A stretch of 64,000 nt of DNA, from positions 28,688,501-28,752,500 of the forward strand of contig JASXTE010000005.1 of the NCBI GenBank assembly GCA_030280995.1, read 5' to 3'. Made by a program: the position numbers and the translations under genes. A model generated the notes under the pieces. It was not told the origin of the DNA. It saw nothing but the letters and a program-made list of their open reading frames with translations, and ran no database searches. Below are positions 17,716-25,177 of the stretch, one piece after another. This DNA is from Hemileia vastatrix (taxonomy: Eukaryota > Basidiomycota > Pucciniomycetes > Pucciniales > Zaghouaniaceae). Each line of letters starts with the position of its first letter. The first letter of the stretch is position 1.

Positions 17716-17746
17716 GGGGGTATAAATGTTGACCGATCCACAATTA
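17716..17746 (+). repeat. Harbinger left terminal inverted repeat
   Basis: GGGGGTATAAATGTT followed by GACCGATCCACAATTA. It pairs with the reverse complement of 25147-25177 with about 5-6 mismatches in 31. A further TTCCGCAATTA motif recurs just inside both ends. Confidence 0.88.
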
Positions 17747-18117
17747 AATTAATTGCGGAAAATAATCTGCATACCCCAATTATCTTCCGCAATTATTTTT
17801 GCTAATAATTTGGTTATTAGACACTTTACGTGTCAATGTTCACCTCTTATCCGATATTTTTTTACTCTATTTTTCATAACCACATATCGGACAACCTTCT
17901 GTCATAACCACATCTTGACCTACTTTCTGCCATAACCAAATCTTGGACTACTCCCTGGATATGCCTTCTACCTTTCTGCGCACTTCCATTATCATCCCAT
18001 CCTGTTCATTCTATCTGCTCTGAATTTCTCCCCATTTCATCTATTTGATTCTGCTCCTTTACACCTCGCTATCTCATCTGCTTGTTTCTGCTCCTTTTCA
18101 TCTTCATTTATAATAAC

Positions 18118-19463
18118 ATGCCTTGTCATCCTAGATCTTCTCAAAGGCAGCCATCACCCAGTTGTTCTTCAATTCCCACTACTTCCTCTTTCCCCTGCTC
18201 AGCCAAGAAATCAAAGAACGTTCAATTAAAAAAAGATGAACATCTCATTCTTATCAACTGGCTGAAAACAAAATCTAAATATGATTCTTGTTTTGGTACT
18301 GAGTATGCCACTAAAGTAGGACGGCCCCCCGCATCAAAAGTTAATGGCTATCTTCTAATGGTAAATGAATTACGGAATAAGACCAAGGGAAGGATTGATC
18401 TTTTGCCTAAACAGATGTCTGAAGGATTCAAGCATTACCAAGGAAAATACAAGAAGGCAAGGGCTCTTTCATCTTCCACTGGTTTTGGGGTTACCGAAAA
18501 CGATATAACTTAGGGCATAAAATCCATAGACGATAAACTTGAAACTTTATGTCCTTACTTTAAAGAGATGGATGCAATTTTTGGAGAGCAAGCCAATGTT
18601 AATCCTGTAAACATGTTGGATGGTGAAGATCCTATCTCCAAACATGATGTCGAAGCAAATCTTTTCCCATCCTCTTCCTCCACTCAAGCCTCCCCTCTTC
18701 TAAATTCTACAAATCTAGATAGCTTTGCTATTGATCCTATTGGAAATTTAACCCAACCCAATCTAACTCAGGTCTGTTTTTTTTCTTTTATCTTATCAAT
18801 ACTTTTTTTATTTACTTAGATTTTCTTATTTCTTAAAAGGCTGATGAACAAGCCCAGGACCCACAATCAACTGAGTCTGAAGCTAGTGACAATGATGAGG
18901 AGGAAAATGCTATGTTGAACAAAAAGCGAAGGGCTTCAAGTAGTCTAAATTTCCACTCCCAAAGAAGACAAAAAAGTGATACTTCATTACAAACCCCTTC
19001 TTTGTCTATGGAACAATTTTTAGAGAAACGTGATGCTGGTAAGTGATACCATACCTATTATTACTTTACTCTGCTTTTCATCTACTTTTTTTTAACATTG
19101 CTTATCACTCTAAAACAAGTGGAAGCTGCTAAAGAGACTCTAAAGTTTGAAAAGCAAAAATATGAGCTCTCTTTAAGGAGGTATGATAGGCTACAAGATT
19201 TGGAAGAGAGGAAGTACCAGCTCTCTTTACGGAAGGATGATCGGGCCCAAGATTTGGAGGAGAAGAAGTTTGAGCTAACTCTAAGTATTGAAAAATCAAA
19301 AAAAGAGGAGAAAACACTTGAACATCAAAACCTATTAGAGCTGATGAAATATAAGTTTGATCATGAAGAAAATTATAAAAAGAAAGATTTCTTGATAGAA
19401 TGTGTTAAAGCTAATAAATCTGTTGAGGAAATTGAACGTTTAAAGAAATTTTTGGATGACTAG
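18118..19463 (+). pseudogene. Myb/SANT-like Harbinger partner protein
   Basis: Start chosen at ATG 18118 (MPCHPRSSQRQPSPS). An N-terminal basic/Ser-rich stretch is followed by a trihelix/Myb-like DNA-binding domain (KKDEHLILINWLKTKSKYD ... VGRPPASKVNGYLL ... MSEGFKHYQGKYKKAR) and a long charged coiled coil (KFEKQKYELSLRRYDRLQ repeated about three times with the ELSLRR/QLSLRK/ELTLSI pattern). Two GT-AG introns fit: 18772-18839 (68 bp, phase 0) and 19039-19119 (81 bp, donor GTAAGT). One in-frame TAG at 18511 is consistent with a CAG to TAG change. In PIF/Harbinger elements such a protein binds subterminal DNA and helps transposase enter the nucleus. That role here is inferred. Confidence 0.8.
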
Positions 19464-19576
19464 TTTGTTTTATTTCTCTCACACTTCAACCGTTCATATT
19501 TATTTGTACATAAAATTTCCAATAATTTCCTTTATTTCATTACTCTACCACTTTTTTTAAATAAAATTTTCATGTC

Positions 19577-20015
19577 TCCTTTGAAAATTTGACAATCCCC
19601 CACCCCTGGATTTTTTTGAAGTAAGGGGTGGGTATCACAAAAATTCTTTCATGTCATGAATCTTGAAAGTCTTATATGAAAATTTGGCTTTACTACCTCC
19701 TGCATTTTACTGGTATCCCAAAAATTCTTACATGTCAAGAATTTCACAAGTCTTATAAGAAATTTTGGCAAAACCCCCCATGAATTTTATTGAAGTAAGG
19801 GATGGGTATCACCAAAAAATTTTCAGCAAAATATTTACAAGTCAAAAAAATTCTATATCTGTTTTAAAAAATTGGCAATACTCTCCCCTGCATTTTATTT
19901 AAGCAAGGGGTGGGTATCAGCAAAATTTTTCTAAGTCATCAATTTCACATGTCAGATTTGAAAATTTGGCAATACCCCCCCTTGCATTTTATTTAAGTAG
20001 GAGGTGGAAGTCATC
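19577..20015. repeat. Minisatellite of about 100 bp, about five units
   Basis: Between the Myb-like and TET-like genes. Each unit combines a TTTGGCAATACCCCCC-like block, TGCATTTTATTTAAG, AAGGGGTGGGTATCA and a CAAGTCTTATATGAAAA-like block. Unit starts are near 19588, 19683, 19764, 19872 and 19968, with one shortened unit. No coding potential. 19464-19576 is T-rich 3' flank of the Myb-like gene. Confidence 0.7.
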
Positions 20016-20353
20016 TAAATTTAATATAATTACATAAATTATTAAATAAATATCTAATATATATCAATTTCCCTAGTTTAAAGTAATGACAATTCCTCAA
20101 GCCAAAATGCAGACCAAGTCTAGAAACAAAAGTTTGGGACTTTCTACAGGTATAGGCAAGAGGAACCTCACGAATCAAACAAATAAATGTTATCATGATT
20201 ACCTGTTATACAACCAAAGATTGATGGCTCATCACATTACTTGAGAAAATTGATATATAAAAAATATTTATTAAAAATTTATGAATAAATATAAAATTTT
20301 TGATGACAACTCTAATCCCCATACTTTTTGGATCTAGATAAAGTTTTTTTAAA

Positions 20354-23535: not shown

Positions 23536-24849
23536 TTAAAAGCGTTGCAAAGTGAAATGTTGGAGAGGAATTGGCATTATAATGGAGCGTATGCCAGTTG
23601 ATTGAATGATTTGTGAATCAAGGGAGGGGAGTGCCGGTGGTGGTTCAGGATCCTCCTCTTCATAAAGATCATTCCACTCATCCTTTGAATCAGCTAGAAT
23701 ATTGTGGAGTATTACGCAAGTCAAGATGCAATGATTTGCAGTTTTGATCTCCAATTTTTTTTGAAATTGGATTCTGAGCTCCCGAAGACTAGAAAATTGT
23801 CCTTTTAAAATACCTATAGCATGTTCAATTCGTACTCTTGATTGTGCAAGGTGATAATTAAAGGCAGTTTTGGGGTCATTTTCTGAAGTTGCACCACGGA
23901 AAGCAGGTATAATGTACTTTCCACTTGCATATGCTGAGTCTGCAAGGAGGTACTGAGATTCGTCAAAGTATGAGTCAGGGGATTGAGAAATCCTCATTCT
24001 TTTGAAGACGGAAGAGTCATGACATGATCCAAGGCAGCCACTGTGAAAAGCAATAAATTTTTTATTGACATCACATACAAGTTGAACGGCGATAGAGTAT
24101 CTAGAAAGAAGATAAAAAGTTAGATTGTAAAAGATGAGAACTTGGAGAAGATTTGGAAGAAACCTTTTTTTGTGATCAAAATAATGGTTGCCATCATGAG
24201 CAGGCTTTTGACTCAAAGGTATAGTTGTGCCATCAACAAATCCTACACAGCCAGGGAAACCTTCAGCTTGCATTACTTGAGAGGATTCAAGTCGTTGTTC
24301 TGGAGTTGGCCAAGCAAGAGTTTGAGACTTGAGGGAAAGGATAGCAATCATGCAGCGCTTGGTGTAAAATATCACGGTACCATATCCTATGTTAAAGAGA
24401 TTATCCAAACGTCTTACGGCAGCACCATTTCCATTTGAGCCAAAGCAACATAGAGCAACAGCAAGTTGGATGGCAGGATTACGCTGTTTGTTATGAGAAT
24501 CTTTATGGAAGATAGGATGTTCAGAAATGAGTTGATAAAGCTTAAAGAAAGAATCGGGAGAAGTTCTAAAAAGTTGGGTGAAGTTTAAATGAATAATGTT
24601 GAGAATGGAGGCCATATCATATCGGGGATCATGATAAAGATTTGGCCCCCTGGTGATGATGTAATGCTTTTTGGAAAGTAAACACATATAAGCTAAAGCA
24701 TCTTCCAAATCAGAGTCAGATTTATAGTAGAGAACTAAAAGTAAAGTGATGGCTTTAATAGTGGAGTGAAGTAGCCGTCTAGTAGAAAGGTGTTTCATTG
24801 TTGCTGGTGGAAGGGTTATGTGATGAGGGAAGTGGGAATTCACCGCCAA
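23536..24849 (-). CDS. PIF/Harbinger transposase (DDE_Tnp_4 type)
   Basis: 437 codons are open. N-terminal part has a helix-turn-helix-like region (DSFFKLYQLISEHPIF ... RNPAIQLAVALCCFGSNGNG). The catalytic core shows GFVDGTTIPLS (first Asp), GSCHDSSVFKRM, LLADSAYASGKY (second Asp) and RVRIEHAIGILKGQF (Glu), which is the Harbinger/HARBI1 pattern. A 63-bp GT-AG intron fits at 24101-24163; removing it gives a smooth HKKRYSIAVQLVCDV join, and it happens to be open and in frame. The start may be Met 24849 or the Met at 24798 (MKHLSTRRLL). It should cut at the 31-bp termini with help from the Myb-like partner. It appears intact, the only apparently whole enzyme in the window. Confidence 0.92.
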   Translation of the reverse strand: MAVNSHFPHHITLPPATMKHLSTRRLLHSTIKAITLLLVLYYKSDSDLEDALAYMCLLSKKHYIITRGPNLYHDPRYDMASILNIIHLNFTQLFRTSPDSFFKLYQLISEHPIFHKDSHNKQRNPAIQLAVALCCFGSNGNGAAVRRLDNLFNIGYGTVIFYTKRCMIAILSLKSQTLAWPTPEQRLESSQVMQAEGFPGCVGFVDGTTIPLSQKPAHDGNHYFDHKKRFLPNLLQVLIFYNLTFYLLSRYSIAVQLVCDVNKKFIAFHSGCLGSCHDSSVFKRMRISQSPDSYFDESQYLLADSAYASGKYIIPAFRGATSENDPKTAFNYHLAQSRVRIEHAIGILKGQFSSLRELRIQFQKKLEIKTANHCILTCVILHNILADSKDEWNDLYEEEDPEPPPALPSLDSQIIQSTGIRSIIMPIPLQHFTLQRF

Positions 24850-25060
24850 ATGTGCAGTTGGGGTGTGTAGATAGAAAAAAAACTTGAGTGTTTGCCACCA
24901 AAGTTAAGTAGCATAGAGTGAGGAAAGACTTAAGGATGGCATCAGCAATTATGAGTCATGTGATTTTCTTGCAAATCCATCATGGATGAGATGAGTTTGG
25001 GATCAGGAAATGGGAATGGAAATTGGGGTATAAGAGGCGGGATAATGCATTATTGTGGAT

Positions 25061-25096
25061 TTCTTATCCACTAGCCCTGGGGCTAGTGGATAAGAA
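25061..25096. repeat. Perfect 36-bp hairpin near the right TIR
   Basis: TTCTTATCCACTAGCCC, a TG loop, and its exact reverse complement. It lies about 80 bp inside the right end of Harbinger. The rest of 24850-25146 is non-coding sequence upstream of the transposase. Confidence 0.85.
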
Positions 25097-25146
25097 TCTT
25101 CCGCAATTAATAATGTCTGATCCCGGGGGAAAAAATTACTGATCCC

Positions 25147-25177
25147 TAATTGCGGATCCCTGAACATTGATACCCCC
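25147..25177 (-). repeat. Harbinger right terminal inverted repeat
   Basis: Ends TTGATACCCCC at 25177; reverse complement GGGGGTATCAATGTT matches the left end at 17716. B LTR sequence resumes after a few extra bases (TAATT) with TATAGATTCAG. Confidence 0.88.

What the first reader, a model, noticed from the sequence alone, without database searches (positions are those of the whole stretch)
17716..25177. A Harbinger transposon that carries a TET/JBP-like 5-methylcytosine dioxygenase
Seen: matching TIRs enclose a DDE transposase (23536-24849), a Myb/SANT-like protein (18118-19463) and, between them, a gene (20354-21714) with HIDRND, IWNSSKDNHQT and FGCSFQIS motifs in the order of fungal TET/JBP proteins. 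Established: TET/JBP genes are expanded in basidiomycetes and linked to KDZ transposons, while Harbinger elements normally encode only transposase plus a Myb-like protein. Inference: this Harbinger lineage has captured an eraser of DNA methylation, which could lift silencing of the element or change excision.
Basis: partly seen in the sequence, partly recalled or inferred. Interest (0 to 1): 0.88.

Follow-up and report, generated by a model that had tools for sequence, protein, structure and literature searches.

The report
Coffee-rust Harbinger transposon carrying TET-like gene
A cut-and-paste transposon, almost certainly from the coffee leaf rust fungus, carries a TET-like DNA-modifying enzyme gene next to its transposase; such elements were described in related rusts in 2025, and near-identical young relatives in the same genome lack that gene.

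Summary
The element at 17716-25177 has 31-nt TIRs (26/31 matches), TA flanks, an open Harbinger DDE frame, a third gene and a Tet-like 2OG-Fe(II) oxygenase gene (PF20515, E=2.4e-31). Another copy has the same ends and three genes in the same order; a sister family has the same order. The host is almost certainly Hemileia vastatrix. The kind is in print: Kojima 2025 (PMC12730594), TET+ Harbinger 'PHISTA' in six other rusts. Added here: another host genus; the TET catalytic exon changes least between sister families (dN/dS 0.03-0.07, dS near saturation); TCG sites in TET+ copies are lost about 20 times as often as C outside CpG, so TET does not stop decay; two complete TET-less copies differ at 34 of 4,950 bases, and their TET-less segment recurs at 99% identity in 17 of 39 other scored hits; at the likely 2OG-anchoring position this TET type has His in 101 and Arg in 0 of 110 rows. 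The window's own TET frame is broken upstream of the catalytic part; the Myb/SANT call is weak. Likely role (inferred): countering methylation-based silencing in the long run, dispensable in short bursts.

The parts
17716..17746 (+). left TIR (starts GGGGGTAT), preceded by TA
   Evidence: alignment to copy L032 starts at 17714
25147..25177 (-). right TIR, followed by TA
   Evidence: alignment to copy L032 ends at 25179
18118..19463 (+). third gene (several exons; Myb/SANT-like only below cut-off; repeated charged segments at the C end); one in-frame stop in this copy
20354..21151 (-). TET-like 2OG-Fe(II) dioxygenase, catalytic frame (HID at 158-160, H223, THFGCSFQI); includes a stretch that looks like an unspliced intron
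21152..21714 (-). 5' (N-terminal, Ser-rich) part of the TET gene; frame interrupted in this copy, with internal duplications
   Evidence: open in sister-family locus L034
22801..23075 (.). G-rich tandem units of about 33 nt between TET gene and transposase
23539..24798 (-). Harbinger DDE transposase, open in this copy, with a 63-nt in-frame GT...AG stretch taken as an intron

Best explanation
This is a PHISTA-type Harbinger DNA transposon of a rust fungus (almost certainly Hemileia vastatrix) that encodes a transposase, a putative DNA-binding partner and a PU-type TET/JBP dioxygenase. Shown: the three genes lie between the same ends in more than one genomic copy, and the proteins are conserved between sister families, TET most of all. 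Inferred: transposase and third protein move the element; the TET protein oxidises (or otherwise modifies) methylated cytosine in or near the element, so that source copies stay expressed. It does not spare dispersed copies from decay at CpG, and short bursts can do without it, perhaps helped in trans by TET+ relatives.
Against: No activity, expression or methylation data. In 0 of 30 fetched TET loci did the N-terminal motif share a frame with the catalytic part, in part expected because of introns; frames are also interrupted in L032 and L033. TET-less complete copies are less diverged than TET+ copies. TCG sites in TET+ copies decay, and CpG other than TCG changes about as often in the TET+ element (28 of 260) as in Gypsy copies without TET (8 of 66). 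His at the presumed 2OG-anchor position raises doubt about canonical TET chemistry.
Confidence: 0.7

Rival explanations
1. The TET gene is a passenger: it was swept into the element, is tolerated, and is lost without cost; transposase and third gene suffice.
For: Complete TET-less copies L066 and L067 differ at 34 of 4,950 aligned bases, gaps apart; 17 of 39 other scored hits to the TET-less segment of L066 are 99% identical; fetched TET+ copies have a median pairwise identity of 96.2%, maximum 98.3% (a different stretch of the element). CpG decay is no lower than in Gypsy copies.
Against: Lowest protein change of the three genes between families, and TET in the same place in sister family L034.
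Confidence: 0.2
2. The PU-type TET does not erase 5mC: it uses another co-substrate or makes another modification (CMD1-like), marking the element or its ends.
For: His in 101 and Arg in 0 of 110 rows at the likely C5-carboxylate anchor; CMD1 heads the VIA-align table, tied with TET2; the CMD1 paper links the lack of a usable basic residue there to use of vitamin C instead of 2OG (passages of PMC7854593).
Against: The His/Arg equivalence is by position in the strand only, without coordinates; another basic residue may bind 2OG. CMD1 is not among the 50 Foldseek rows shown.
Confidence: 0.2
3. The element is a chance nest: a Harbinger that was hit by an independent TET-bearing insert.
For: TET-less copies exist.
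Against: Same order and orientation in L032, L065 and the diverged L034, and collinear partial copies L031, L033; no pair of ends around the TET gene among the 25 longest of 111 inverted repeats shown.
Confidence: 0.03

Closest known systems
PHISTA: TET+ Harbinger transposons of Pucciniales (Kojima 2025, PMC12730594)
   Same: Harbinger-type transposase, TA flanks, a TET/JBP gene and a third gene in a rust fungus; TET-less relatives known there too
   Different: Hemileia is not among the six species named for TET+ Harbinger in the main text; third protein gives a sub-threshold Myb_DNA-bind_4 hit where the paper reports no such domain; TET-less copies seen here are near-identical, recent ones of the same element
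Nuwa / canonical Harbinger transposons (as described in PMC12730594)
   Same: DDE transposase plus a possible Myb-like partner
   Different: TA rather than 3-bp duplications; extra TET gene
KDZ (Dileera, Kyakuja, Zisupton) transposons with TET/JBP genes (as described in PMC12730594)
   Same: DNA transposon carrying a TET/JBP gene
   Different: Other transposase superfamily
CMD1, TET2, NgTET1 and CcTET dioxygenases
   Same: Fold of a PU-type relative, and HxD...H triad
   Different: His in place of Arg at the presumed 2OG C5-carboxylate anchor; 8-16% sequence identity over the structural alignments

Membership tests
PHISTA (TET+ Harbinger) | Harbinger-type DDE transposase | tested here: met
   PF13359 E=1.8e-24; best five hits 44-49% identical over 92-99% of the query, four of them from Puccinia or Austropuccinia, one unnamed; two Asp invariant in 6 of 6 aligned, the Glu in 4 of 6 (catalytic assignment recalled)
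PHISTA (TET+ Harbinger) | TA target-site duplication | tested here: met
   TA on both sides in 5 of 5 copies with both ends: window, L032, L065, L066, L067; no empty site was read, so TA as a fixed end is not formally excluded
PHISTA (TET+ Harbinger) | PU-type TET/JBP gene inside the element | tested here: met
   PF20515; named relatives are from Austropuccinia and Puccinia (120 of 179 listed); inside both ends in the window, L032 and L065. 'PU type' is assigned by kinship, not by the paper's figure
PHISTA (TET+ Harbinger) | third protein without Myb/SANT domain | tested here: inconclusive
   PF13837 E=0.0064 (L065), 0.006 (L066), 0.00092 (L034 piece) at 17.3, 17.4, 20.0 bits, cut-off 27
PHISTA (TET+ Harbinger) | transposase clusters with published PHISTA sequences in a tree | not tested
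TET/JBP dioxygenase | HxD...H iron triad on a DSBH fold | tested here: met
   fold tested on P. triticina relative P0192, since the model of the window protein was poor
TET/JBP dioxygenase | Arg that anchors the C5-carboxylate of 2OG | tested here: inconclusive
   His in 101, Arg in 0 of 110 rows; equivalence inferred from place at the start of the last core strand, 424-432 of P0192
TET/JBP dioxygenase | oxidation of 5-methylcytosine in DNA | not testable with these tools
   needs an enzyme assay
Nuwa / canonical Harbinger | 3-bp target-site duplication | tested here: not met
   the three bases next to the GGGGG ends differ between the two sides in 5 of 5 copies (for example ATA and TAA, TTA and TAT); only TA is shared

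The most novel reading that the evidence does not exclude
Rust transposon TETs form a class with altered chemistry: the 2OG-anchoring Arg is replaced by a near-invariant His, so they may use another co-substrate or leave a different DNA mark that serves the transposon, and TET-less copies exploit that mark in trans.
Probability: 0.15. Interest if true: 0.8.

Novelty: new member of a known kind. Interest (0 to 1): 0.42.

Why it matters
It extends TET-carrying Harbinger transposons to a further rust, where Tet-like domains are very abundant (150 of 150 scored matches over the Pfam cut-off, from 10,849 first-look candidates). One genome holds TET+ copies, TET-damaged copies and young TET-less copies of the same element, which makes the open question of what the TET does for the transposon directly testable with methylation data.

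Tried and rejected
Rejected: a nested or chance TET insert. Rejected: that CpG retention shows TET protection. CpG observed/expected is 0.28 in the element and 0.10-0.11 in two Gypsy copies, but 0.42 in window 26780-39087, a retroelement-like stretch without TET ('Gypsy' and 'retroelement' judged by eye from ORFs, no domain search); the Gypsy copies have no TCG site in the compared columns, and their other CpG sites change about as often as those of the element. Led nowhere: structure of the window protein (mean pLDDT 48; not searched); PDB sequence searches (no credible hit); viral contigs (no relative; a collection little suited to a fungus); paper searches for PF20515, for 'Tet-like' with two other terms, and for Hemileia with TET (none). 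The 40 best TET and 40 best transposase copies share only the window's own locus; both lists are capped, so this is no evidence of separation.

Full report
What is there. The element runs from 17716 to 25177, bounded by 31-nt inverted repeats that match at 26 positions; 0 of 100 simulated flank pairs reached 26, while 6 of 95 real segment pairs of the window reached 30-31. TA stands on both sides. Inside lie a third gene (18118-19463, +), a TET-like gene (20354-21714, -) and a Harbinger transposase (23539-24798, -). Pfam gives PF20515 'Tet-like 2OG-Fe(II) oxygenase' at E=2.4e-31 and PF13359 at E=1.8e-24. The transposase frame is open and holds a 63-nt GT...AG stretch that five aligned relatives from other species lack, taken as an intron. 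The TET catalytic frame is open, but its 5' part is interrupted in this copy, and the third gene has one stop; open frames exist in other loci (TET; third gene).

Host. The genome served as G000 has 747,610,610 bases in 791 contigs, and contig C26 is 71,415,227 bases long. The published Hemileia vastatrix Race I assembly has, by its Table 1, 747,980,110 bp, 794 scaffolds and a largest scaffold of exactly 71,415,227 bp (PMC10652848, first of two text parts read). The small difference in total is unexplained.

Other copies. L032 aligns from 17714 to 25179 (with a break between 21412 and 21524) at about 89% and holds pieces of all three genes with both ends. L065, chosen by its transposase (97% DNA identity), has both ends too, with the TET catalytic part but without window 20957-23149, which includes the TET 5' part. 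L031 and L033 are collinear partial copies. L034 belongs to a sister family: TET 75%, transposase 56%, first piece of the third gene 57% amino-acid identity, same order, an open 385-aa TET frame, but 4 stops in the transposase frame and no clear ends. The search with the TET gene DNA scored 40 copies at 90-100% identity, the window included, out of 5,380 first-look candidates; 28 of 30 fetched TET loci, the window included, have the third-gene exon nearby; 14 of the 30 best PF20515 loci have it within 1.5 kb. Genome counts are lower bounds, since only the best candidates are scored.

Target sites. In 5 of 5 copies with both ends the base outside the TA is the same on both sides, so that the restored site would read TTAT or its reverse complement ATAA (sequence reading). 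This fits a TA duplication in a preferred TTAT site; five sites are few.

TET-less copies. L066 and L067 have both ends (4,974 and 4,955 bases, TA on both sides), transposase and third gene, but no TET: window 19536-22810 has no counterpart apart from short repeats. They differ at 34 of 4,950 aligned bases, gaps apart. L066 was picked from third-gene hits of near-equal score, and L067 from hits to the TET-less segment of L066; they are not random picks. That segment has 40 scored hits from 3,398 candidates, 17 of the 39 others at 99%; only these two were inspected whole. The 30 fetched TET+ copies have a median pairwise identity of 96.2%, highest 98.3%, over a different stretch. Since the sister family has TET in the same place, loss is more likely than late gain (inference).

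Selection and decay. Between window and L034, dN/dS is 0.065 for the TET catalytic exon, 0.087 for the transposase, 0.2 for 95 codons of the third gene; L031-L033 against L034 give 0.026-0.049 for TET. Synonymous differences are near saturation (0.67-0.74 per site), so the ratios are rough, and decay of the L034 transposase after insertion may add to its value; still, nonsynonymous change is clearly lowest in TET (0.07-0.10 against 0.26-0.27 per site). Between copies of the family the first third-gene piece shows little constraint (4 synonymous, 16 nonsynonymous differences, window against L031). Among 30 TET copies, C-to-T change is found at 172 of 660 TCG cells (26%), 14 of 120 ACG, 27 of 240 CCG, and 227 of 17,071 non-CpG cells (1.3%). 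This fits the TCG hypermutation of rusts cited in PMC12730594 and shows that carrying TET does not spare the copies. As a control, non-TCG CpG changed in 8 of 66 cells of three Gypsy copies and 28 of 260 of the TET+ element, so no protection is visible.

Third protein. Relatives hit Myb_DNA-bind_4 at E=0.0009-0.006, below the cut-off. A DNA-binding role is plausible but unproven.

Known or new. Kojima 2025 reports TET+ Harbinger elements with TA duplications in six rust species, TET-less relatives, and proposes escape from silencing. My search found no paper that joins Hemileia, TET, dioxygenase and transposon (open-licence library only). The supplement of the 2025 paper was not readable here, so a Hemileia family listed there is not excluded.

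Noticed in passing
window 2401-8600, 43466-49548, 51800-57303: Three copies of one Gypsy-like retroelement, 91-93% identical, CpG observed/expected near 0.10, no TCG site in the compared columns.
   Followed up: partly
window 26780-39087: A retroelement-like stretch with clearly higher CpG observed/expected (0.42) than the Gypsy-like copies.
   Followed up: no
window 22300-23075: Poly-C and poly-G tracts and a G-rich tandem array of about 33-nt units inside the transposon, possibly quadruplex-forming.
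   Followed up: no
window 17751-17800 and 25098-25109: Sub-terminal TTGCGGAA-type motifs in inverted order near both ends, possible protein-binding sites (sequence).
   Followed up: no
window 17714-17715 and 25178-25179; L032, L065, L066, L067: All five insertions read would restore a TTAT/ATAA target, a possible target preference.
   Followed up: partly
window 59570-60480: Long simple repeat that gives open KN/KI/FY frames on both strands.
   Followed up: no
G000, third-gene hits: 150 scored hits at 89% identity or more, many with near-equal scores and open 261-aa frames, from 13,419 first-look candidates: looks like a recent burst.
   Followed up: partly
window 18118-18510 against L031 and L032: Third-gene piece shows more nonsynonymous than synonymous differences between copies (16 to 4, 16.5 to 1.5): relaxed or changing selection.
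   Followed up: no
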